DNA of 64,000 nt. Origin: an uncultured Flammeovirgaceae bacterium (GTDB lineage: Bacteria > Bacteroidota > Bacteroidia > Cytophagales > Cyclobacteriaceae). The stretch spans positions 62,001-126,000 of the forward strand of contig CAKZYA010000062.1 of NCBI GenBank assembly GCA_937883755.1, written 5' to 3'. The notes beneath the pieces are model-generated. The model searched no databases. It saw nothing but the letters and a program-made list of their open reading frames with translations, and was not told the origin of the DNA. Positions 20,773 through 48,347 of the stretch are shown here, piece by piece (positions within the stretch are counted from its first letter, which is position 1; every line of letters begins with the position of its first letter). The position numbers and the translations under genes are program-made.

Positions 20773-20783
20773 GTGCCCTTTTT

Positions 20784-20928
20784 GGGAGTGCGCCAGAGTT
20801 GGAGAGCTGGGGCGGTCCGGGCCACGGTAGCTGTAAAATCGTTGTGCTAGACACTGAGTAGGTTCAACCGTGACGGCACGGCGTCCACCGTGGATCATGC
20901 CCGACCGGAACCGTTCTTACCACTCCCA
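20784..20928 (+). tRNA. tRNA-Tyr(GTA)-like gene with two insertions
   Basis: The acceptor stem GGGAGTG/CACTCCC and the D stem CCAG/CTGG are perfect. The anticodon stem GCGGT/ATCGT (with G-U pairs) encloses 21 nt: a 14-nt insert (20817-20830) followed by a normal 7-nt loop CTGTAAA with anticodon GTA. A long variable arm typical of class II tRNAs follows. The T stem GTAGG/CTTAC encloses 53 nt, starting TTCAACC and then about 46 extra nt that contain a TCCA-CCG-TGGA hairpin. A functional tRNA would need both inserts removed or tolerated. Confidence 0.65.
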
Positions 20929-20931
20929 CAA

Positions 20932-21019
20932 TGACCCATAGCTCAGTTGGTTAGAGTACCTGCCTTATACGTAGTAGGTGCCTGGCCACCGTGGAACGGT
21001 TCGAATCCGGGTGGGTCGA
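20932..21019 (+). tRNA. tRNA-Ile(TAT)-like gene with 14-nt T-arm insert
   Basis: Acceptor TGACCCA/TGGGTCG, D stem GCTC/GAGT, anticodon loop CTTATAC (anticodon TAT), variable loop AGGTG, T stem CCTGG/CCGGG and T loop TTCGAAT are all placed at canonical spacing. The exception is a 14-nt insert CCACCGTGGAACGG (20986-20999) between the last base of the 5' T strand and the first base of the T loop. Acceptor pair 1-72 is T-G and pair 27-43 is mismatched. It starts 4 nt after the tRNA-Tyr-like gene. Confidence 0.65.
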
Positions 21020-21022
21020 TTT

Positions 21023-21093
21023 TGCCGGATCGTCTAATGGGAAGACATCAGTTTTTGGAGCTGAAGACATGGGTTCGATTCCTATTCCGGCAG
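21023..21093 (+). tRNA. tRNA-Gln(TTG)
   Basis: Seven-bp acceptor stem TGCCGGA/TCCGGCA, anticodon stem TCAGT/GCTGA with loop TTTTGGA (anticodon TTG), and T arm ATGGG-TTCGATT-CCTAT. It has no insert, unlike its upstream neighbour 3 nt away. CCA is not encoded. Confidence 0.8.
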
Positions 21094-21098
21094 CGCTG

Positions 21099-21261
21099 AA
21101 GGAGGGGCAAAACGGGTGCCTCCTTAAAATCGGAGAAGGGTTAAAGACCCTACGCAGGATTCCGTTTGTTCTGCAATGTTCAGAAAAAGCTCCGAAGCAA
21201 ACCAGCAGGTTATCCTCTTATATTGGCGTATGAATTATACATCAGTAAAAAGAGGTAACCT
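21099..21261 (+). ncRNA. Candidate structured RNA between tRNA-Gln and tRNA-Phe
   Basis: Four stems can be drawn: AAGGAGG/CCTCCTT (21099-21125); TCGGAG/CTCCGA (21130-21195), enclosing the hairpins GGGT-TAAAG-ACCC and GCAG...CTGC; and a long stem AGGTTA(T)CCTCTT/AAGAGGTAACCT (21207-21261) capped by GTAT-GAATT-ATAC. The last looks like a Y-RNA-type long stem but lacks the YCGTA/GCTTGT loop of the array at 23707. No coding frame fits. The function is unknown. Confidence 0.4.
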
Positions 21262-21266
21262 TAACT

Positions 21267-21341
21267 GGATGGGTAACTCAGTTGGTAGAGTGCCAGTGTG
21301 AAGTACTGGTGGCGTAAGTTCGATTCTTACCCCATCCACCA
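21267..21341 (+). tRNA. tRNA-Phe(GAA) with encoded CCA
   Basis: Perfect acceptor GGATGGG/CCCATCC, D stem ACTC/GAGT, anticodon stem CCAGT/ACTGG with loop GTGAAGT (anticodon GAA at 34-36), and T arm GTAAG-TTCGATT-CTTAC. The 3' ACCA is encoded, which I did not see for the other tRNAs of this locus. No insert is present. Confidence 0.75.
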
Positions 21342-21371
21342 TAAGAATTAAATGATTTGTTTAACTAAAAA

Positions 21372-21881
21372 ATGGTAGAAGCCATGACTATGCAATTACT
21401 GGAGCAGTACATGCTAGAAGCTGATCGAGCCTTCGCTCAGGAGGACTATGTGCGCGGCAAAAGTCTGGTAGAGGAAGCGTTAGCGCTGGAGCCGGACTAC
21501 GGCGAAGCCCACAACTACCTGGGTTGGCTGTACCTGTACCATCTTAGCGATCTGGAAAAAGCTGAAGAGCACCTCAAGTTAGCGATTCGGTACAAGCCGA
21601 GCTGCCGGGGTGCCTACGTACACCTTTCCACTATGTTTACCGACCAGGGGCACTTGGAGGAGTTGCAAATATTGCTTCCCAAAGCGTTAGCGGTACGAGG
21701 TATCAACCGGGTAGCTTTGCTGGTAGACTGGGGACGAATGCAGGAGTCATTGGGTAACTACCAGCCAGCAGTTCGCCACTATAAGGCGGCCATGAAAGCC
21801 AGTATGAGCAATAGCGAACAGGATGGCTTACGCGATCATATCCGCCGCTGCCGACGAAAACGCTGGATTCGGTGGATGTAA
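21372..21881 (+). CDS. TPR-repeat protein upstream of Rsr
   Basis: A 169-residue protein made of about four tetratricopeptide repeats, for example the helix pairs around ALEPDYGEAHNYLGWLYLY and AIRYKPSCRGAYVHLS. It ends in a strongly basic tail (RRCRRKRWIRWM) that could contact RNA. TPR domains mediate protein-protein contacts. It lies 30 nt after tRNA-Phe and 119 nt before the TROVE gene on the same strand, so it is likely a partner in the same RNA-handling system. No signal peptide is present. An alternative start is the ATG at 21387. Confidence 0.75.
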   Translation: MVEAMTMQLLEQYMLEADRAFAQEDYVRGKSLVEEALALEPDYGEAHNYLGWLYLYHLSDLEKAEEHLKLAIRYKPSCRGAYVHLSTMFTDQGHLEELQILLPKALAVRGINRVALLVDWGRMQESLGNYQPAVRHYKAAMKASMSNSEQDGLRDHIRRCRRKRWIRWM

Positions 21882-21889
21882 AAGGCGGC

Positions 21890-21944
21890 GCGCTGGACTC
21901 GAACAAGATGGCGTCCAGCGCTTACGAGCGGGGGCTTGTCCCCG
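21890..21944 (+). other. Two hairpins in the TPR-Rsr spacer
   Basis: A perfect 9-bp inverted repeat GCGCTGGAC (21890-21898) / GTCCAGCGC (21913-21921) is followed by CGGGG/CCCCG (21929-21944). Neither ends in a T-run. They may stabilise or separate the TPR and TROVE parts of one transcript. Confidence 0.5.
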
Positions 21945-22000
21945 ACTTGGTCGGATATGCCTCCTGGCAGATAATTTAAACTGAGAAACTAACAGAAATC

Positions 22001-23554
22001 ATGCGATTCAATATCAAAACCAAACGAACCAATAAGGTCAAAAACTACGAAGGAGATGAAGCTTATACTATGTCTCCTGCTATGGAACTGTACGCTAGCG
22101 TCGTGACTACTACTTTGGCTGATAAGTTCTACGAGAAGGATCAAAAACGCATCACGCGTCTGCGAAAGCTGATCGCTAAAAACGATCCTCGGTTCGTAGC
22201 CAAGCTGGCCGTATACGCTCGGGAGCAAATGCATCTGCGTTCAGTGCCACTGGTACTGGCGGTAGAGCTAGCCAAAGTGCATCGCGGCGATAATCTGATG
22301 AGCCAGACGGTAGCTCGAGTGGTGCAACGGGCCGACGAGATCACTGAATTACTGGCGTACTACGCAGTGGCCAACCAACGCAAGGGCACCAAGCAATTGA
22401 ACTTGCTATCGAAGCAAATCCAGAAGGGATTAGCGCAGGCGTTCAACCGCTTTGATGCCTACCAGTTGGCGAAGTACAATCGGGCTACTAGCATCAAGCT
22501 GAAGGATGCGCTGTTTCTAGTGCACCCTAAAGCTAAGGACGAAGCGCAGCAAGTAATCTTCAACCAACTGGTGAACGATACATTGCCCGTGCCTTACACC
22601 TGGGAAACCGAACTATCGGCCCAAGGTCAGCAAACCTTTGCCAACGAAGCTGACAAGCAATTGGCTTTCCGAACCAAGTGGGAGGAGCTGATTGATAGCG
22701 GTAAGCTAGGCTACATGGCGATGCTGCGTAACCTGCGCAATATTCTGGAAGCCGAGGTTTCCAGTGATCAGCTGCAAAAGGTTTGTGCATTGCTGAGCGA
22801 TGAGCGAGCCGTAGCCCGATCCAAGCAGTTACCGTTCCGTTTCCTGGCGGCCTACCGGGAGATTAAGGCGCTGAAGCTAGCCGAAAGCACTATGGTGCTA
22901 AATGCCTTGGAAGCAGCGGTTCGAGCTAGCGCAGCTAACATCCCTGGCTTTGATGAGAACGTGCGGGTACTAATTGCCTGCGACGTGTCCGGATCAATGC
23001 AACGAGCGATTTCGCCTAAGAGCAAAATCCAGAACTACGACATCGGTTTAATGTTGGGTATGTTGCTGCAAAGCCAGTGCCAGCGGGTAATCACTGGTAT
23101 CTTCGGAGACCGCTGGAAGGTTATTAATCTGCTGCAGGGAAATATCCTGGCTAACGTTGATGAACTGCATCGGCGCGAGGGTGAGGTAGGTTACTCCACC
23201 AATGGTTACCTAGTGGTAAAAGATCTGATCAAGTGCCGAAAGGTAGTAGATAAAGTGATGATCTTCACCGACTGCCAGTTGTGGAACTCGAACGGCTACC
23301 GATGGTCGGCACCCCGATGGGGAGGCACTGCTAGTACCGAAACCATTGCTCAGCTATGGGGACAGTACAAGCAAATCGCTCCCGAAGCCAAGCTGTATCT
23401 GTTTGACCTGGCAGGCTACGGTAACACTCCGCTGGATATCCGGGGAAACGATGTGTTCTTCGTAGCGGGCTGGTCCGATAAGGTGTTTGCGGTACTACAG
23501 GCGATAGAAAACGGAAGCCACGCCGTGGCCGAAATTAAGAAGATCGCCATGTAG
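22001..23554 (+). CDS. rsr: TROVE-domain Ro60 homologue (Rsr)
   Basis: A 517-residue RNA-binding protein of the Ro60/TROVE family. The N-terminal two thirds (about residues 15-320) is the helical-repeat TROVE ring, starting with KNYEGDEAYTMSP and MELYASVVTTTLADKFYE. The C-terminal part is a von Willebrand A-like domain whose metal site DVSGSM lies near residue 328. Ro60 and bacterial Rsr bind Y RNAs on their outer surface and misfolded or fragmented RNAs in the central ring. Rsr is often encoded with Y RNAs and RtcB. Here it sits between two tRNA groups and 2.3 kb upstream of the Y-like array and RtcB genes, on the same strand. Confidence 0.93.
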   Translation: MRFNIKTKRTNKVKNYEGDEAYTMSPAMELYASVVTTTLADKFYEKDQKRITRLRKLIAKNDPRFVAKLAVYAREQMHLRSVPLVLAVELAKVHRGDNLMSQTVARVVQRADEITELLAYYAVANQRKGTKQLNLLSKQIQKGLAQAFNRFDAYQLAKYNRATSIKLKDALFLVHPKAKDEAQQVIFNQLVNDTLPVPYTWETELSAQGQQTFANEADKQLAFRTKWEELIDSGKLGYMAMLRNLRNILEAEVSSDQLQKVCALLSDERAVARSKQLPFRFLAAYREIKALKLAESTMVLNALEAAVRASAANIPGFDENVRVLIACDVSGSMQRAISPKSKIQNYDIGLMLGMLLQSQCQRVITGIFGDRWKVINLLQGNILANVDELHRREGEVGYSTNGYLVVKDLIKCRKVVDKVMIFTDCQLWNSNGYRWSAPRWGGTASTETIAQLWGQYKQIAPEAKLYLFDLAGYGNTPLDIRGNDVFFVAGWSDKVFAVLQAIENGSHAVAEIKKIAM

Positions 23555-23562
23555 GTAAAAAA

Positions 23563-23591
23563 GGACTGTCAGCTTTTACAACTGGCAGTCC
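23563..23591. other. Strong hairpin after rsr
   Basis: A 10-bp stem GGACTGTCAG/CTGGCAGTCC with a 9-nt loop lies 9 nt after the rsr stop. On the + strand it is followed by TCTTAAAAAA, not a T-run, so + transcripts should read through into tRNA-Lys and the array. On the - strand it is followed by TTTTTT and would terminate antisense transcription. Confidence 0.7.
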
Positions 23592-23603
23592 TCTTAAAAA
23601 AGC

Positions 23604-23677
23604 GTGCTCGTAGCTCAACTGCGCAGAGCCTCCGACTTTTAATCGGAAGGTTGTGGGTTCAAATCCCATCGGGCACA
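23604..23677 (+). tRNA. tRNA-Lys(TTT)
   Basis: A canonical tRNA: acceptor GTGCTCG/CGGGCAC, D arm GCTC...GAGC, anticodon stem TCCGA/TCGGA with loop CTTTTAA (anticodon TTT), variable loop AGGTT and a TTCAAAT T loop. No insert is present. It precedes the first Y-like RNA by about 30 nt. Confidence 0.88.
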
Positions 23678-23706
23678 CAGATGATGTAAAAATTTTGAAT
23701 ATTTAG

Positions 23707-23824
23707 AAGGATGTCGTTAGAAGTGAAATACTTCGCTGCCGATGGGGAGGATTAGCCCATAGAGGCTAACTGGGTTCGAATCCCAGCATAGCGTGCCCCG
23801 AATTCGCTTCGCTTGTTACTCCTT
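23707..23824 (+). ncRNA. Y-RNA-like element A with tRNA-like body
   Basis: The terminal stem pairs AAGGA (23707-23711) with TCCTT (23820-23824). A conserved internal loop TCGTTA/GCTTGT follows, then an 8-bp helix GAAGTGAA (23720-23727) / TTCGCTTC (23803-23810) and the conserved ATACTTCG box. The body is D-arm-poor: a GGGG/CCCC closing helix, a 6-bp hairpin TTAGCC/GGCTAA and a perfect T arm CTGGG-TTCGAAT-CCCAG. The overall plan matches a bacterial YrlA RNA: a Ro-binding stem plus a tRNA-mimic module. The assignment is by structure and by the adjacent rsr gene, not by a covariance search. Confidence 0.65.
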
Positions 23825-23887
23825 TTATTTGAAATATGAATGATGACAAAAATAAACAGTTATGATAAGATAGAATAAAAGAAAAAA

Positions 23888-24052
23888 GGTGTCGTAGAAC
23901 AGCGTTACCGTCCGGCGGCCCGGTTCGATTCAGGTTCGAATGGTCGGAGGCCATCGTGGCGCGATTCGAATCCTCCCAGGCCCATACAAACAGAAATGGG
24001 CCTGTAGCTCAGTTGGTCAGAGCGCTTATGTCTTCGCTGTTCGCTTGTCACC
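23888..24052 (+). ncRNA. Y-RNA-like element B with circularly permuted tRNA body
   Basis: Terminal stem GGTG/CACC, internal loop TCGTA/GCTTGT, then 8-bp helix GAACAGCG (23897-23904) / CGCTGTTC (24035-24042). The body runs in permuted order: anticodon arm TTCGA-TTCAGGT-TCGAA (23924-23940), variable loop TGGTC, T stem GGAGG, 14-nt insert (23951-23964), T loop TTCGAAT, CCTCC, acceptor 3' strand CAGGCCC (23977-23983), linker of 14 nt, acceptor 5' strand GGGCCTG (23998-24004), D arm GCTC...GAGC. The acceptor stem is a perfect 7 bp closed by the linker. The Ro-type stem therefore emerges at the D-arm/anticodon-arm junction. Confidence 0.75.
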
Positions 24053-24065
24053 CCTATTTAAAGAG

Positions 24066-24188
24066 AAAAGGCTGCCGTAGAAATGGAATACTTCGCTTCA
24101 TTAGACTAGCTGGTTAAGTCGCCGGTTTTGTACCGGACACGCGGGTTCGAGTCCCGTATGAAATTTCCGCTTCGCCTGTTGCGCTTTT
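24066..24188 (+). ncRNA. Y-RNA-like element C enclosing a linear tRNA body
   Basis: AAAAG (24066-24070) pairs with CTTTT (24184-24188). The internal loop CCGTA/GCCTGT, a helix GAAATGGA (24080-24087) / TCCGCTTC (24166-24173) with one A-C mismatch, and the box ATACTTCG follow. The body is a complete tRNA in normal order: acceptor-like TTCAT/ATGAA, D arm GACT...AGTC, anticodon arm CCGG-TTTTGTA-CCGG, T arm GCGGG-TTCGAGT-CCCGT. The acceptor stem is fused to the Y-type stem, so no free 3' end exists. By position the anticodon reads TTG, but U at position 37 makes that uncertain. Confidence 0.65.
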
Positions 24189-24193
24189 AAACT

Positions 24194-24268
24194 AGTGGTG
24201 CCGTAGAGGAGGGATACTTCGTTAGACTGGAAATCTAAACCCACAACTCTCTTCGCTTGTCGCCCACT
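24194..24268 (+). ncRNA. Y-RNA-like element D, minimal, with Ser(GGA) anticodon hairpin
   Basis: AGTGG (24194-24198) pairs with CCACT (24264-24268). The internal loop CCGTA/GCTTGT is followed by an 8-bp helix GAGGAGGG (24206-24213) / CTCTCTTC (24247-24254) and the box ATACTTCG. The whole body is one hairpin TTAGA-CTGGAAA-TCTAA, a perfect 5-bp anticodon arm with a 7-nt loop and anticodon GGA (serine). No D arm or T arm remains. At 75 nt it is the smallest of the series. Confidence 0.65.
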
Positions 24269-24280
24269 TTATGAAGATCT

Positions 24281-24452
24281 CCGAAAGATGTCGTAGATGT
24301 GCGTTACTTCGTGGTAATTCCTTTTGGATAAATAGGCCGTCGTGGCGCGATTCGATTCCTATCCCCGGCTCTAAGAAAAGAAATTATGACGGGAAAAGCT
24401 TCTGGTTGTATCAGAGGCGAATTGAGTCGCTCGTCGCCCATTACTCTTTCGG
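24281..24452 (+). ncRNA. Y-RNA-like element E, apparently permuted and partly degenerate
   Basis: CCGAAAG (24281-24287) pairs perfectly with CTTTCGG (24446-24452). The conserved TCGTAG and GCTCGT strands and the TTACTTCG box are present, but the 8-bp inner helix is weak. The body holds a T stem ATAGG/CCTAT with a 14-nt insert (24337-24350) before the TTCGATT loop, then CCCCGGC, a 17-nt linker and GACGGGA followed by a D-arm-like hairpin GCTTCTG/CAGAGGC. This order mirrors the permutation in element B, though acceptor pairing is only partial. Confidence 0.5.
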
Positions 24453-24457
24453 TTTAT

Positions 24458-24530
24458 GCTCCCGTCGTCCAATGGCTTAAGACATCCGGCTTTCTACCGG
24501 AAAACGAAGGTTTGATTCCTTCCGGGAGTA
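24458..24530 (+). tRNA. tRNA-Glu(TTC)-like
   Basis: Acceptor GCTCCCG/CGGGAGT (G-U at 1-72), anticodon stem TCCGG/CCGGA with loop CTTTCTA (anticodon TTC), and T stem GAAGG/CCTTC. Two departures from consensus suggest reduced function: the T loop reads TTTGATT (C56 changed) and position 37 is T. It begins 5 nt after element E. No insert is present. Confidence 0.65.
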
Positions 24531-24536
24531 CTAAAT

Positions 24537-24611
24537 GCCCCTGTAGCTCTAAGAGGCAGAGCGCAGTAAAACACTTGTAGGGACGGCCGTCGTGGAACGA
24601 TCGCAGGGATC
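24537..24611 (+). tRNA. Degenerate tRNA-like gene with 14-nt insert
   Basis: The 5' part is tRNA-like: acceptor GCCCCTG, TA, D arm GCTC-TAAGAGGCA-GAGC. The anticodon region is too short for a normal arm. It ends GACGG followed by the insert CCGTCGTGGAACGA (24587-24600). The T loop and 3' T strand are missing; CAGGGAT may serve as an imperfect 3' acceptor strand. A further D-arm-like hairpin GGCT...AGCC lies near 24625-24645. It is a decayed tRNA or a highly modified mimic. Confidence 0.4.
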
Positions 24612-24652
24612 AAGGTTTCTGGACGGCTGAATTGTGGTTAATAGCCCAGTAA

Positions 24653-24810
24653 GCCCCAGCATCGCTCCGGCGACCCGGCGAACAGCCTCTCGAGGGAAGC
24701 TTAGTAGGGAAGCGTCCGACGTGGAACGTGTCTCCTGGTCTCATGCTAAGCTTGATGAATATCAGGCGAGTACGGGCCATCGTGGCGCGATTCAAATCTC
24801 GCCGGGGGCT
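24653..24810 (+). tRNA. Class II tRNA-like gene (Leu-like) with several insertions
   Basis: Acceptor GCCCCAG (24653-24659) pairs with CGGGGGC (24803-24809) with one mismatch, and the T stem GCGAG/CTCGC encloses a 20-nt insert plus a TTCAAAT loop; the insert ends with the same CCATCGTGGCGCGA string as elements B and E. A short variable hairpin GAT-GAAT-ATC precedes it. An 8-bp stem AAGCTTAG/CTAAGCTT (24697-24753) encloses 41 nt with an ACGT-GGA-ACGT hairpin where the anticodon loop should be. The D region is expanded and holds TCGC-TCCG-GCGA. The amino acid identity is uncertain. Confidence 0.45.
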
Positions 24811-24818
24811 TATTTAAA

Positions 24819-24891
24819 AGCGAGTTAGTCTAATGGCTAAGACACTTCTCTCATAAGGAAGAGAAACACGGTTCGATTCCGGTACTCGCTA
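24819..24891 (+). tRNA. tRNA-Met(CAT)
   Basis: Acceptor AGCGAGT/ACTCGCT is perfect; the D stem is GTCT/AGAC; the anticodon stem CTTCT/GGAAG has loop CTCATAA (anticodon CAT). The T stem keeps only three pairs (CGG/CCG) around TTCGATT. It could be elongator Met or, if lysidine-modified, Ile. It is the last tRNA before the PcfJ-like gene. Confidence 0.7.
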
Positions 24892-25004: not shown

Positions 25005-26306
25005 ATGGGAAACCAGATTTCAAAACAATGCTCTCGTCAGGAGCGACTGTTACAACTTCAGTATAAAACTGAGCGGGAGCGAGCTTTTATTGAAACATTA
25101 TCGGAGCGGAAGGTTACGAATCAATCTTGGCAGAAATTAGTCGATGGCCTGTATCACGACACAGTATCCGAAAAAAAATTAGTGACCGAAATAAGTATTA
25201 AATTGTATGAGCTTTTCAGTAAGTGTTCAGCTAAAAAGCGTCAGACTCAGCGAAAGCAGTTTCGGGAGGTGCTTCTTCATCTACACCAGCAAAAGTGTTA
25301 TAAACTGCTACAGGATGCAGAGTACTTAGCGGGATTATTTACCATGTGCCGGTACACTCACGCTATGATGCATCCTGTGAAGGAGTGGAAACGTCCGTCG
25401 CATAGTGCAGAAAGGCAGTTTGTGTCGCTAGTAAATCTCTGCTTTGTCCGGTACAAAGTGCCGGGTTTTCTGTACCAGGTTTGGCTCGATACCAAAAAGA
25501 ATACGCAGCAGCAGTGGTTCATCGATCTGGGAAGTGGAAAAAACATTCGACGGGTTCGTGGACTGCCGATAACGATGACTAAGAAAATGGCTCATCTTTT
25601 TCTGCAAGCCACTGATGAGCTTACGGTAGAAGAAGCTTTGCGATGGTCGCAAGCAAGAGGGATGGGATGTAGTGACCAAATAGCTGAGGCAGTTGCGATG
25701 AGTCGCTTAAGTAGGAATAGGTTTCATGCTGAATCTTTTTGGGAGTCCGTCATTCGGTTCATAGCGCAGCAACCCGAAGAATATGCCGACAAAGTGTGCG
25801 AAGTAATAGATTACATTGCGTACGCTTACGAGCAAAATACTGATTTCTCGATGAAGGGTAGAACCTGGAATGCTTTGTGGCGACAAACTCAGGCTTGGCA
25901 CGAAGAACTCAATCGGGAACGAAAGTTAGGAGGCCGTTACGTATGGGAAAGTTCGGGTATTGGTGAGCGATTAATTACGAAAGGAAGCGGTACCAAAACG
26001 AAAACTTTCCAACTTATTGAACTTTCTTCTTCTAAAGCACTTGCGATGGAGGGAAGAAAAATGCACCATTGTGTTTCCACCTATGCCTACGTTTGTTACA
26101 AACGGCGATCAGCTGTTTTCTCCTTACGGATGTACGATCAAGCAGTACCTGAGGAGACTACCTTAGCTACTATTGAAGTAGATTTGAAGCAAAGACGGGT
26201 GGTGCAAGCAAAAGCCCGATTCAACGCGCGTATTTCTCGGCAAGCTCAACAAATAATGGAGAAGTGGGCATTTGAAGAAGGATTAACACTAGCCCCTTGG
26301 CTGTAA
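25005..26306 (+). CDS. PcfJ-domain protein
   Basis: A 433-residue basic protein whose C-terminal third fits the PcfJ-like domain. A block with the key words EGRKMHHCV (about residues 349-357) is followed by a tyrosine/arginine segment, FSLRM, then TIEVDLKQRRVVQAKARFN. PcfJ domains occur in conjugative elements and phages and have no established reaction; the conserved His-Cys pair suggests catalysis or metal binding. The N-terminal two thirds is helical with no recognised domain. It lies between the tRNA array and rtcB on the same strand, 18 nt before the next gene, so it is probably part of the RNA-repair operon. Confidence 0.7.
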   Translation: MGNQISKQCSRQERLLQLQYKTERERAFIETLSERKVTNQSWQKLVDGLYHDTVSEKKLVTEISIKLYELFSKCSAKKRQTQRKQFREVLLHLHQQKCYKLLQDAEYLAGLFTMCRYTHAMMHPVKEWKRPSHSAERQFVSLVNLCFVRYKVPGFLYQVWLDTKKNTQQQWFIDLGSGKNIRRVRGLPITMTKKMAHLFLQATDELTVEEALRWSQARGMGCSDQIAEAVAMSRLSRNRFHAESFWESVIRFIAQQPEEYADKVCEVIDYIAYAYEQNTDFSMKGRTWNALWRQTQAWHEELNRERKLGGRYVWESSGIGERLITKGSGTKTKTFQLIELSSSKALAMEGRKMHHCVSTYAYVCYKRRSAVFSLRMYDQAVPEETTLATIEVDLKQRRVVQAKARFNARISRQAQQIMEKWAFEEGLTLAPWL

Positions 26307-26324: not shown

Positions 26325-26744
26325 ATGAAAATTAAAGTTTTATACCGACCGGTAGGCATCAATGAATTGAACAAGATTGCCAACCTAGACTTCCGAGGTT
26401 TTCCATCTCGCTTGGCTTGGCAACCCATTTTCTATCCGGTGCTCAACTTTGAGTATGCTGAGCAAATAGCAAGGGATTGGAATGCCAAGAGCGACGAAGG
26501 AATAGGGTTTGTGACTCGATTTGCGGTTGACATAGATTACCTCCGCCAGTTTGACGTGCAAACCGTAGGTGGGCCTATTCATCAGGAGCTTTGGATTCCA
26601 GCAGAGGAGCTAGAAAATTTCAATCGTATGATTGACGGGAAGATTGAAGTCGTTTCAGTGTACTACGGTGAGAATTTTGACAGGAGTCAGGTTTCACCCA
26701 GCATTAAAGAACTACTAAAAAACATAAATCATGGCAACAAATAA
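26325..26744 (+). CDS. Small protein coupled to RtcB
   Basis: A 139-residue soluble protein with conserved-looking blocks: LYRPVGINEL, GFPSRLAWQPIFYPVLN, FVTRFAVDIDYL and HQELWIPAEELENFN. From memory this resembles small proteins annotated as ADP-ribosylation/crystallin J1-related, but I cannot confirm the name or any activity. Its last 14 nt overlap the rtcB start, indicating translational coupling and a likely physical or functional partnership with the ligase. Confidence 0.6.
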   Translation: MKIKVLYRPVGINELNKIANLDFRGFPSRLAWQPIFYPVLNFEYAEQIARDWNAKSDEGIGFVTRFAVDIDYLRQFDVQTVGGPIHQELWIPAEELENFNRMIDGKIEVVSVYYGENFDRSQVSPSIKELLKNINHGNK

Positions 26745-28146
26745 ATTAACCGGCAAAGACTTGCGAAAACTGGGTTATCCTGAGGGAAAAATTATCAGGT
26801 TGGCTCTGCAAGCTATTGAAGATGGATACAAAGGCAAGAACCGAAAAGTGAAACTGGACTTGCTGAAAAAAGTCTACCAATACCCACATAACTACGTGAA
26901 GGATCAGATAGTAGGTGCGGTGGCTCAGGCTTTGCTCACTCCTGCTGAAGACTCAGGCAGAATTGCGCTGAACAAGCAGCGGAAAGATTACCCGATCTAT
27001 GGTGAAGCGGGGATTGAAGAAGGAGCCAAGCACCAGATGAACGTAGCGATGAAGCTTCCTGTTACGGTAGCTGGGGCGTTAATGCCCGATGCTCATCAAG
27101 GCTACGGTTTGCCCATCGGCGGAGTGCTGGCTACTGAAAATGCGGTGATTCCCTACGGCGTTGGCGTGGATATTGGTTGTCGGATGTGCATGACTTTCTA
27201 CGACCTGCCCACGGCTCACCTAACCGAGCGAAACGATCAGCTTCGGAAGATGCTGATTGATAATACCCGATTCGGGCAGGCTACGTTTCAGCGACCGAAA
27301 GATGATGCGGTGCTGGAGCGACCGGAGTTTCAGGAGATCAAAGTAGTGCGAGACCTGAAGGATCGAGCCTACAATCAAATTGGTTCTTCCGGTGGAGGTA
27401 ATCACTTCGTAGAATTCGGAGTAGTTGACGTGGTGGATACCGATAATGAGTTTGGCGTACCTGTCGGGAAATACCTGGCGGTACTGTCGCACTCGGGTTC
27501 CCGAGGACTGGGGGCTAATATTGCGGCGCACTACACCAAAATCGCTAAGTCGGTGTGCAAACTGCCCGATGAGGCCAAACACCTGGCGTGGCTGGATCTG
27601 GACTCGGAAGCCGGACAGGAGTACTGGCGAGCCATGAACCTGGCGGGTGACTACGCTTCGACCTGTCATCACCAGATTCACGAACGGCTCGGAAAAGCTC
27701 TGGGCGAAGCTCCTTTGGCGATGGTGGAAAACCACCACAACTTTGCTTGGAAGGAGCGGGATGCGGACGGCAATGAGATCATCGTTCACCGAAAGGGAGC
27801 TACTCCCGCGGGTAAAGGAGTGTTGGGAATTATTCCCGGTTCCATGACTGCTCCCGGCTTCATTGTGCGGGGACGAGGCGAAGTAGCATCAATCAATTCG
27901 GCTTCTCACGGAGCAGGGCGGGTGATGTCACGACGAAAAGCCAAGCAGTCGATCACCCAGCAGGAAGTAACCAATGCCCTGAAGCAAGCAAAGGTAACGC
28001 TGATTGGCTCCGGCCTGGACGAAGCTCCGATGGCCTACAAAGACATCCGGGAGGTAATGCGGCAGCAAGAAGACCTGGTGGATATTGTGGGCACTTTCCA
28101 GCCCCGAATTGTCCGAATGTGTGGCCCCAACGAGGGCTGGGATTAA
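26731..28146 (+). CDS. rtcB: RNA-splicing ligase RtcB
   Basis: A 471-residue GTP- and Mn-dependent RNA ligase that joins 2',3'-cyclic phosphate (or 3'-phosphate) ends to 5'-OH ends. Metal ligands are visible: GVDIGCRM with Asp146 and Cys150, GGGNHF with His225, SHSGSRG with His254, and ENHHNF near residue 334. The SASHGAGR motif places the guanylylated histidine at about His393. Such ends are produced by anticodon nucleases and by tRNA-splicing endonucleases. It follows the 139-residue protein with a 14-nt overlap and ends the locus before a terminator. No archease or RtcA gene is seen nearby. Confidence 0.97.
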   Translation: MATNKLTGKDLRKLGYPEGKIIRLALQAIEDGYKGKNRKVKLDLLKKVYQYPHNYVKDQIVGAVAQALLTPAEDSGRIALNKQRKDYPIYGEAGIEEGAKHQMNVAMKLPVTVAGALMPDAHQGYGLPIGGVLATENAVIPYGVGVDIGCRMCMTFYDLPTAHLTERNDQLRKMLIDNTRFGQATFQRPKDDAVLERPEFQEIKVVRDLKDRAYNQIGSSGGGNHFVEFGVVDVVDTDNEFGVPVGKYLAVLSHSGSRGLGANIAAHYTKIAKSVCKLPDEAKHLAWLDLDSEAGQEYWRAMNLAGDYASTCHHQIHERLGKALGEAPLAMVENHHNFAWKERDADGNEIIVHRKGATPAGKGVLGIIPGSMTAPGFIVRGRGEVASINSASHGAGRVMSRRKAKQSITQQEVTNALKQAKVTLIGSGLDEAPMAYKDIREVMRQQEDLVDIVGTFQPRIVRMCGPNEGWD

Positions 28147-48272: not shown

Positions 48273-48347
48273 GGGTTCTTAGCTCAGTTGGTTTAGAGCA
48301 CCTGCCTTACAAGCAGGGGGTCGTAGGTTCGAATCCTACAGGACCCA
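48273..48347 (+). tRNA. tRNA-Val(TAC)
   Basis: Canonical cloverleaf: acceptor GGGTTCT/AGGACCC, D arm GCTC...GAGC, anticodon stem CCTGC/GCAGG with loop CTTACAA (anticodon TAC), T arm GTAGG-TTCGAAT-CCTAC. No insert. It serves as a normal reference for the unusual tRNAs at 20-25 kb. Confidence 0.95.

What the first reader, a model, noticed from the sequence alone, without database searches (positions are those of the whole stretch)
23707..24452. Tandem array of five Y-RNA-like RNAs with diversified tRNA-like bodies
Five consecutive elements share one terminal architecture: an outer stem, a conserved internal loop YCGTA / GCYTGT, an inner helix of 8 bp whose sequence differs but still pairs (GAAGTGAA/TTCGCTTC, GAACAGCG/CGCTGTTC, GAAATGGA/TCCGCTTC, GAGGAGGG/CTCTCTTC; weak in the fifth), then a WTACTTCG box. 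Compensating changes between copies are direct evidence for RNA structure. The GGTG-YCGTAG ... CTTGTCACC plan resembles the Ro60-binding GGUCCGA/UUGACC stem of animal Y RNAs, and the rsr gene lies just upstream. Known bacterial operons have one or two YrlA RNAs; here each stem carries a different body (T-arm module, permuted tRNA, whole tRNA, single anticodon hairpin).
Basis: partly seen in the sequence, partly recalled or inferred. Interest (0 to 1): 0.92.

Follow-up and report, generated by a model that had tools for sequence, protein, structure and literature searches.

The report
Ro60 RNA array displaying anticodon loops
Next to a bacterial Ro60 gene and an RNA-repair ligase gene lies a row of small RNA genes that share one pair of ends but carry different pieces resembling transfer RNAs; similar arrays sit beside this gene in related bacteria, where some pieces expose anticodon loops and may work as decoys for RNA-cutting toxins.

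Summary
Five elements (23711-24444, + strand) share a Y-RNA end module between rsr (22001-23554) and rtcB. 79 of 80 fetched Bacteroidota rsr loci (the best 80 of 174 confirmed) carry 1-9 such elements, median 5. The box motif tracks Rsr: 12 of 24 TROVE-positive versus 16 of 272 TROVE-negative genomes, the latter at control rate. Sister species G003 has rtcB but no rsr, and no element in the matching stretch. Inner-helix covariation is strong. Published Y RNA models do not reach significance in the window; relatives match YrlA below its gathering score. New to me: in 94 of 409 elements the constant box CUUCG helps close a 7-nt anticodon-type loop (shuffled maximum 12), with varied anticodons; nine relatives' elements carry a copy of the 23S rRNA helix-69 region there, five of them exact over 25 nt. 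Neighbours are RNA-repair genes. Best reading: Rsr-bound RNA decoys or baits for ribotoxins. Identity is well supported; function is inferred, without expression or binding data. A new variant of a known kind.

The parts
22001..23554 (+). rsr, bacterial Ro60 (TROVE) protein, 517 aa
   Evidence: Pfam TROVE E 7.3e-31; phmmer to solved TROVE-domain proteins 9l5y/9kop E 1.6e-23, weak to 2nvo annotated Rsr E 0.0067
23711..23819 (+). E1: Y RNA element; T-arm plus hairpin body with GGGG/CCCC stem, Deinococcus-Y-like layout
   Evidence: R1 model E 3.8e-4; RF01053 21.3 bits, E 0.37, gathering 80
23889..24051 (+). E2: Y RNA element; permuted tRNA body (T-arm with insert, closed acceptor AGGCCCA/TGGGCCT, D-arm); box degenerate
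   Evidence: RF02553 YrlA over the whole model 19.5 bits, gathering 69; not listed by R1; not in the 409-element set
24072..24182 (+). E3: Y RNA element with an unpermuted whole tRNA body, anticodon UUG
   Evidence: tRNA 24095-24165, 45.4 bits, ARAGORN; inner helix 7 of 8; R1 E 0.78, not significant
24198..24263 (+). E4: short Y RNA element whose body is one anticodon-type hairpin UUAGA-CUGGAAA-UCUAA (GGA in a 7-nt loop)
   Evidence: held-out R1 match E 5.5e-9; folds as drawn
24288..24444 (+). E5: Y RNA element; permuted tRNA-like body with T-arm insert and D-arm
   Evidence: inner helix 7 of 8; R1 E 2.8e-3
21372..21881 (+). TPR protein upstream of rsr
   Evidence: Pfam TPR_16 E 1.7e-8
23604..23678 (+). 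free-standing tRNA-like gene, anticodon UUU, between rsr and E1
24458..24531 (+). free-standing tRNA-like gene, anticodon UUC
24536..24813 (+). tRNA-like with acceptor, D-arm and T-arm but an insertion of about 190 nt in place of the anticodon arm
   Evidence: sequence reading; D-arm and T-arm-insert repeats 24533-24564 and 24774-24800
24819..24891 (+). free-standing tRNA-like gene, anticodon CAU
25005..26306 (+). PcfJ-like protein
   Evidence: Pfam PcfJ E 1.4e-13; a PcfJ-like protein cluster in 13 of 80 related loci, one representative Pfam-tested
26325..26744 (+). protein of 139 aa, no Pfam match
26731..28146 (+). RtcB RNA ligase
   Evidence: Pfam RtcB E 7.1e-87; RtcB cluster in 51 of 80 related loci

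Best explanation
The locus encodes an Rsr (bacterial Ro60) ribonucleoprotein with five tandem Y RNAs inside an RNA-repair island. Shown by sequence: each RNA has a constant end module (outer stem, YCGTAG / GCYTGT internal loop, 8-bp inner helix that covaries, WTACTTCG box) and a variable body. In part of the relatives' elements the 3' part of the box (CUUCG plus 0-4 nt) pairs with following, often tRNA-derived, sequence to close a 7-nt anticodon-type loop with U33, or closes a copy of the 23S rRNA helix-69 loop. Inferred: Rsr binds the constant stem and holds the displayed loop as a decoy or bait, so that RNA-cutting toxins (anticodon nucleases and rRNA-directed nucleases) bind or cut the Y RNA instead of tRNA or ribosome, while RtcB, and in some relatives RlaP, an Rnl1-like ligase and PNKP, reseal what was cut. 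Steps not shown: transcription, Rsr binding, toxin binding.
For: Box tied to TROVE genes: 12 of 24 TROVE-positive versus 16 of 272 TROVE-negative genomes; the 18 matches in the former all lie on the same strand within about 2.4 kb downstream of the TROVE match; the reversed-pattern control gave 20 matches in 296 genomes. 79 of 80 rsr loci hold elements. Covariation: 38 of 48 helices with at least 7 of 8 pairs versus swapped mean 5.0, maximum 12. Box-closed anticodon-type loops in 94 of 409 elements, shuffled mean 6.7, maximum 12 in 200; with the same stem, position 33 is U in 94, C in 17, A in 8, G in 1. 23S helix-69 region right after the box in 9 elements. Protein clusters: RtcB in 51 of 80 loci, divergent WYL regulator in 41, PARG 13, RlaP 9 and 8, Rnl1-like ligase 6, PNKP 6, one representative of each Pfam-tested. 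Sister species G003 lacks rsr and shows no element in the matching 8.5-kb stretch but keeps rtcB. PMC7790460 (passage) proposes that the YrlA tRNA-like domain could competitively inhibit an anticodon nuclease.
Against: No expression or binding data. Most elements (315 of 409) show no box-closed anticodon loop by my criterion; in the window only E3 and E4 show convincing anticodon loops, both self-closed, and the box-criterion hit in E1 is mostly G-U pairs. Some of the 94 are doubtful: four UUGAAAU loops (L043, L046, L050, L066) compete with a longer self-closed GUU hairpin in the same body. Same-anticodon duplicates within a locus are not significantly rare: 1 versus 3.3 expected, P 0.12. 10 of 94 loops have A34, unusual for real bacterial tRNAs. 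51 of the 94 come from Hymenobacter, so they are not independent. YrlA fragments were not detected in Salmonella under nuclease-activating conditions (passage), which fits a decoy but not a cut bait. Of nine cluster proteins, five of them from the window, only a relative's WYL regulator matched PADLOC. Of the rRNA-type bodies only the short helix-69 region is reliably shared with 23S.
Confidence: 0.5

Rival explanations
1. Tethers, as in the published RYPER model: Rsr-bound Y RNAs whose tRNA-like bodies recruit PNPase or other tRNA-binding enzymes for decay or quality control of structured RNA; the different bodies aim the particle at different partners or only drift.
For: Known role of Y RNA in D. 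radiodurans and the RYPER description (passages of PMC7790460, and PMC8394870); 133 of 409 bodies keep the T-arm then D-arm order by a simple motif test; YrlA-model matches in relatives to E 2.3e-8.
Against: Does not predict anticodon-type loops with U33 closed by a constant box, bodies without a T-arm (71 of 409 short ones), or the 23S helix-69 copy.
Confidence: 0.27
2. Bait and sensor: Y RNAs are cut by the same nucleases as tRNA, and the cut or its cyclic-phosphate ends switch on the repair genes through the WYL regulator or other proteins.
For: WYL regulator cluster upstream in 41 of 80 loci; the Salmonella operon is regulated by damaged tRNAs (PMC7790460, title and start of abstract, passages).
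Against: No direct evidence for cutting; YrlA fragments were not detected in Salmonella; none of the six window proteins tested near rsr is a WYL protein.
Confidence: 0.13
3. Degenerating tRNA genes: arrays arise from captured tRNA genes, and the bodies drift without function.
For: Free tRNA-like genes lie among the elements in the window and in several relatives; bodies vary widely; some anticodons are unnatural.
Against: End module and covarying helices kept across the phylum; U33 and the closing strands kept while position 34, and less so 35, varies in one orthologue group; association with rsr.
Confidence: 0.1

Closest known systems
YrlA, Rfam RF02553 (Y RNA-like, Salmonella and others)
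   Same: Encoded next to rsr and rtcB (PMC7790460, passages); T-arm, closed acceptor and D-arm in permuted order; 3' end CUUGUCGC-like
   Different: Window elements score 19.5-20.6 bits against gathering 69; a gathering-level scan of 14 related loci gave no YrlA match; at E-value level YrlA matched in four of five loci scanned, best 49.6 bits. The printed YrlA consensus has no U33 anticodon loop at that register (my reading). Bodies here also include bare hairpins, unpermuted tRNAs and, in relatives, a 23S piece.
Deinococcus radiodurans Y RNA, Rfam RF01053
   Same: 30 of 409 elements, E1 among them, have a T-arm plus hairpin body with a GGGGAGG motif; E1 aligns over the whole model
   Different: E1 21.3 bits, E 0.37, gathering 80: not a member by score
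Salmonella rsr-yrlBA-rtcBA RNA repair operon (PMC7790460, passages seen)
   Same: Rsr, Y RNAs and RtcB together; link to tRNA damage
   Different: Here up to nine elements per locus, no RtcA among the proteins tested, a WYL regulator in many relatives, anticodon-type loops displayed
TROVE and RtcB in phages (PMC7824862, passages seen)
   Same: TROVE protein, RNA ligases and tRNAs in phages, discussed there as RNA repair
   Different: Those are phage genes: 95 records match Rsr, all below 60% identity, 33.5% for the top listed. The box motif gave single matches in eight IMG/VR stretches, no array

Membership tests
Bacterial Y RNA (general) | Encoded beside an rsr/TROVE gene | tested here: met
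   E1 begins 157 nt after the rsr stop; 79 of 80 related loci; association
Bacterial Y RNA (general) | 5' and 3' ends pair into a conserved stem | tested here: met
Bacterial Y RNA (general) | Bound by Rsr | not testable with these tools
   needs pull-down
YrlA RF02553 | Match at the gathering score (69 bits) | tested here: not met
   19.5 and 20.6 bits in the window; no gathering-level match in 14 related loci; relatives 31 to 49.6 bits
YrlA RF02553 | tRNA-like domain in the order T-arm, closed acceptor, D-arm | tested here: met
   E2 (and E5 loosely); T-arm then D-arm in 133 of 409 elements; E1, E3 and E4 do not have it
Deinococcus Y RNA RF01053 | Match at the gathering score (80 bits) | tested here: not met
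   E1 21.3 bits, E 0.37
Animal Y RNA | Match to the Rfam animal Y RNA family | tested here: not met
   no match listed at E<=10 in 23690-24480
Ribotoxin decoy | Displays the target loop of a toxin in native form | tested here: inconclusive
   94 of 409 anticodon-type loops and 9 helix-69 copies; no toxin was tested
Ribotoxin decoy | Protects cells from the toxin | not testable with these tools
   needs experiment

The most novel reading that the evidence does not exclude
Bacteroidota Ro60 particles carry a modular, evolvable decoy library: one constant Y-RNA frame whose box CUUCG serves as a universal 5' strand, into which target loops of translation-machinery-cutting toxins are slotted (anticodon loops of Lys, Asp, Pro, Asn, Leu, Met and other types, and 23S helix 69), with the displayed anticodon open to change in an arms race, backed by RtcB repair.
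Probability: 0.27. Interest if true: 0.92.

Novelty: new variant of a known kind. Interest (0 to 1): 0.76.

Why it matters
The job of bacterial Y RNAs inside RNA-repair operons is open (PMC7790460 says its studies did not address it; passage). Arrays in which one constant frame presents different anticodon-type loops, or an rRNA loop, make the question testable: what is displayed predicts which nuclease should be blocked or sensed. They also give a natural series of presumed Ro60 ligands that differ mainly in cargo, and would extend Y-RNA tRNA mimicry from the D, T and acceptor arms to the anticodon.

Tried and rejected
Rejected: animal-type Y RNA (no Rfam match); permuted tRNA genes that mature into functional tRNAs (the 5' anticodon-stem strand is mostly missing and in many the loop is already closed by the box: reading sequences, inference); a phage-borne array (eight single box matches in IMG/VR); homology of the rest of the 23S-type body to 23S rRNA: in five of six elements the score did not exceed shuffles, L018 did in the unrestricted comparison (24.0 versus maximum 21.5) but not in the restricted one.

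Led nowhere or weak: IMG/VR search for the T-arm insert (25 single matches); identity of array tRNAs to G000 host tRNAs across loci (119 near, 19 far; metric not discriminating); PADLOC; within-locus anticodon redundancy (P 0.12). For the mini-stem, permutation within spacer class is much tighter than the overall one (observed 53, mean 46.0, maximum 52), so much of the pairing is set by spacer type.

Rows dropped: L081, L082, L089-L100 as duplicates or chance loci (some, L092, L095, L097 and L098, are genuine TROVE genomes) and one opposite-strand hit in L047, leaving 409 elements in 86 loci. The 409 include four of the five window elements; E2 fails the box test. 41 boxes without a 3' partner were left out. 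The L073 '23S' row is a false regex hit, leaving nine. The helix test used 48 unique pairs from 52 of 250 exact 5' modules, because both motifs had to be exact. In building R1 I left out two of 21 selected short elements.

Full report
What is there. In the window, on the + strand, a TPR gene (21372-21881), rsr (22001-23554, TROVE E 7.3e-31), a tRNA-like gene (23604-23678), five Y-type elements (23711-24444), further tRNA-like genes (to 24891), a PcfJ-like gene, a small gene and rtcB (26731-28146, E 7.1e-87) form one run. The strict box pattern occurs three times in the 7.6-Mb genome, all here.

Is it more than chance? A covariance model from 19 short elements of other loci finds held-out E4 at E 5.5e-9, E1 at 3.8e-4 and E5 at 2.8e-3; E3 is not significant (0.78) and E2 is not listed. 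The same model gives 172 matches at E<=0.1 over 71 sources: all lie on the + strand of the 45 rsr loci and none in the 26 viral control stretches; none of these 45 loci supplied sequences to the model. In 148 whole genomes six match at E<=0.001; five of them are TROVE-positive and one (G188) is not. The element finder returned 432 paired elements, some duplicated between loci of one genome; it found one on the strand opposite rsr (L047) and one each in two loci of TROVE-negative genomes (L094, L096), and 41 boxes without a 3' partner. In a helix test in which the 3' module was chosen without looking at pairing, 38 of 48 unique helices have at least 7 of 8 pairs; strands swapped between elements give a mean of 5.0 and a maximum of 12 in 1000 trials. 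On the model alignment 61 cells change on both sides against 24.2 in shuffles, 0 of 500 as high; those sequences were chosen partly for pairing, so one search is the cleaner test. Published Rfam Y RNA models do not reach significance in the window.

Link to Rsr. Of 296 Bacteroidota genomes, 12 of 24 with TROVE carry the strict box and 16 of 272 without TROVE do. The 18 matches in the first group all lie downstream of the TROVE match on the same strand, within about 2.4 kb. The 18 matches in the second group are about background (20 matches of the reversed pattern over 296 genomes). Of 80 fetched rsr loci (the best 80 of 174 confirmed), 79 hold at least one element (1-9, median 5); L003 has none, also by model. 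In most loci the array lies downstream of rsr. Rsr itself is sporadic: 8 of 59 genomes, the own genome among them, and none of the three other genomes of the genus searched. In sister species G003 the flanking aldo/keto reductase (92% identical) and rtcB (97%) remain, but the rsr-array stretch is replaced by other genes; the model finds no element in the 8.5-kb stretch fetched from G003 or in the three stretches fetched from G002. The rest of those genomes was not searched for elements.

What the bodies are. Of 409 elements in 86 loci, sorted by simple motifs: 133 have T-arm then D-arm (the YrlA plan), 104 a T-arm with no D-arm recognised, 30 a Deinococcus-Y-like GGGGAGG layout, 7 D-arm then T-arm, 71 are short without T-arm, 9 of 23S type, 55 other (a tenth 23S hit, L073, is false and counted here). 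Rfam's YrlA model matches in four of five loci scanned at E-value level, up to 49.6 bits and E down to 2.3e-8, below its gathering score of 69; a gathering-level scan of 14 loci gave none.

The new part. In elements whose T-arm puts the tRNA register 0-3 nt after the box, U33 is present in 84 of 114 (shifted registers 10 to 55 of 114), and the last box nucleotides pair with the tRNA-derived 3' strand over at least 3 bp in 53 of those 84 (permuted mean 15.7, maximum 27; within spacer class mean 46.0, maximum 52). Without requiring a T-arm, 94 of 409 elements have a box-closed 7-nt loop of anticodon type; shuffles give a mean of 6.7 and a maximum of 12. Examples are UCG-CUGUUAA-CGA, CGA-CUCAUAA-UCG and GCA-CUUUUAA-UGC. 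Among 90 unique ones the commonest anticodons are UUU 13, GUC 9, UGG 9, GAA 7, GUU 6, CAG 6 and CAU 4; of the GAA type, four UUGAAAU loops (L043, L046, L050, L066) are doubtful because the same bodies hold a longer self-closed GUU hairpin. The hits come from Hymenobacter (51), seven other named genera and 21 other loci, the window among them. In eleven orthologues (ten Hymenobacter and L083) the box, U33 and the 3' strand CGAYG are kept; position 34 varies strongly, 35 moderately, 36 not at all, and some T-stem and acceptor columns vary as much. In nine elements of other loci the same site holds a copy of the 23S rRNA helix-69 region, the box degenerate in one (L078): exact over the 25 nt 1911-1935 in five; six score 20.5-28.5 against a shuffled maximum of 14, and the other three are weaker. 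Consensus folding of six of these draws the helix-69 loop closed by the box, with 16 of 54 pairs covarying. The window has E4, a self-closed Ser-type hairpin, and E3, a whole tRNA body with UUG; it has no clear box-closed loop (the E1 hit is mostly G-U).

Neighbourhood. In the 80 loci, protein clusters near rsr are RtcB (51 loci), a divergent WYL regulator (41), PcfJ-like (13), PARG (13), RlaP (two clusters, 9 and 8), an Rnl1-type RNA ligase (6) and PNKP (6); one representative of each was Pfam-tested. This is an RNA-repair setting.

How it most likely works. Shown: architecture, conservation, link to rsr, loop display. Inferred: Rsr binds the constant stem and the displayed loop attracts a nuclease. 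PMC7790460 (passages) raises competitive inhibition of an anticodon nuclease by YrlA as a possibility. PMC9223846 (passages) reports that the RtcB2-PrfH module protects cells from colicin E3 but not from the tRNA-cutting colicins E5 and D, and that E5 cuts Tyr, His, Asn and Asp tRNAs and D cuts Arg tRNA; so RtcB-type repair alone need not suffice against tRNA cutters. Lys-specific nucleases are recalled, not looked up. Against the decoy reading: no functional data, many elements without a loop, anticodon non-redundancy not significant. I put the decoy reading at about one half, a tether as in the published RYPER model at about a quarter, the rest bait or drift.

Literature. The listings of searches (43 and 62 capped at 15 of 70 and 15 of 18) showed no paper titled or abstracted on anticodon loops or rRNA pieces in Y RNAs. 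The papers most likely to treat this (Chen 2014, Burroughs and Aravind 2016, Wang 2018 under the DOI I tried, Sim 2020; recalled) are not held, so priority is not established. From PMC8394870 I saw passages only: it describes YrlA as a mimic of the D, T and acceptor arms of tRNA.

Noticed in passing
window 20983-21009, 23948-23974, 24334-24360, 24774-24800; L179 (reverse strand): A 14-nt hairpin insert CCRTCGTGGCGCGA sits between the T-stem 5' strand and TTC in four tRNA-like bodies here (two of them inside E2 and E5) and in three tRNA-like genes in sister species G003; compensatory changes (ATCGT-GGC-GCGAT, ACCGT-GGA-ACGGT). G003's counterpart of tRNA-Phe (window 21267) has it, the window copy does not. 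Intron-like, and near rtcB. One further genome match (contig C58) is not in a tRNA.
   Followed up: partly
window 24536-24813: tRNA-like gene with acceptor, D-arm and T-arm halves but an insertion of about 190 nt in place of the anticodon arm.
   Followed up: no
L002:14832, L018:8905, L049:10646, L053:14530, L062:11593, L069:11605, L070:11596, L078:12233, L080:11630: Y RNA elements carrying a copy of the 23S rRNA helix-69 region plus a structured domain of about 140 nt without a reliable match to 23S; of these, L002, L018 and L080 were scanned with Rfam and gave no match there.
   Followed up: partly
L007, L008, L028, L033, L037, L040, L041, L051: Long runs of tRNA-like genes (7 to 15 by ARAGORN, a few inside Y elements) of many isoacceptors beside rsr; the rare Ile(UAU) type occurs in L037, L040 and L051 as well as at window 20932; possibly spare or decoy tRNAs.
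   Followed up: partly
window 25005-26306; PcfJ-like cluster in 13 of 80 loci: A PcfJ-like protein of unknown function is repeatedly linked to rsr arrays.
   Followed up: no
window 20780-20931 and 21095-21262: Two intergenic stretches with low predicted folding energy (-56.7 and -62.3 kcal/mol, no shuffle control); 21093-21290 is 91% identical in sister species G003.
   Followed up: no
window 20932-24891: The seven ARAGORN tRNAs in this locus (Ile, Gln, Phe, Lys, Gln, Glu and Met types) resemble none of the host tRNAs compared closely: best score 0.56-0.67 against 0.79 for the tRNA-Val at 48273; only tRNAs on the 30 fetched loci were compared, of 41 genome matches.
   Followed up: partly
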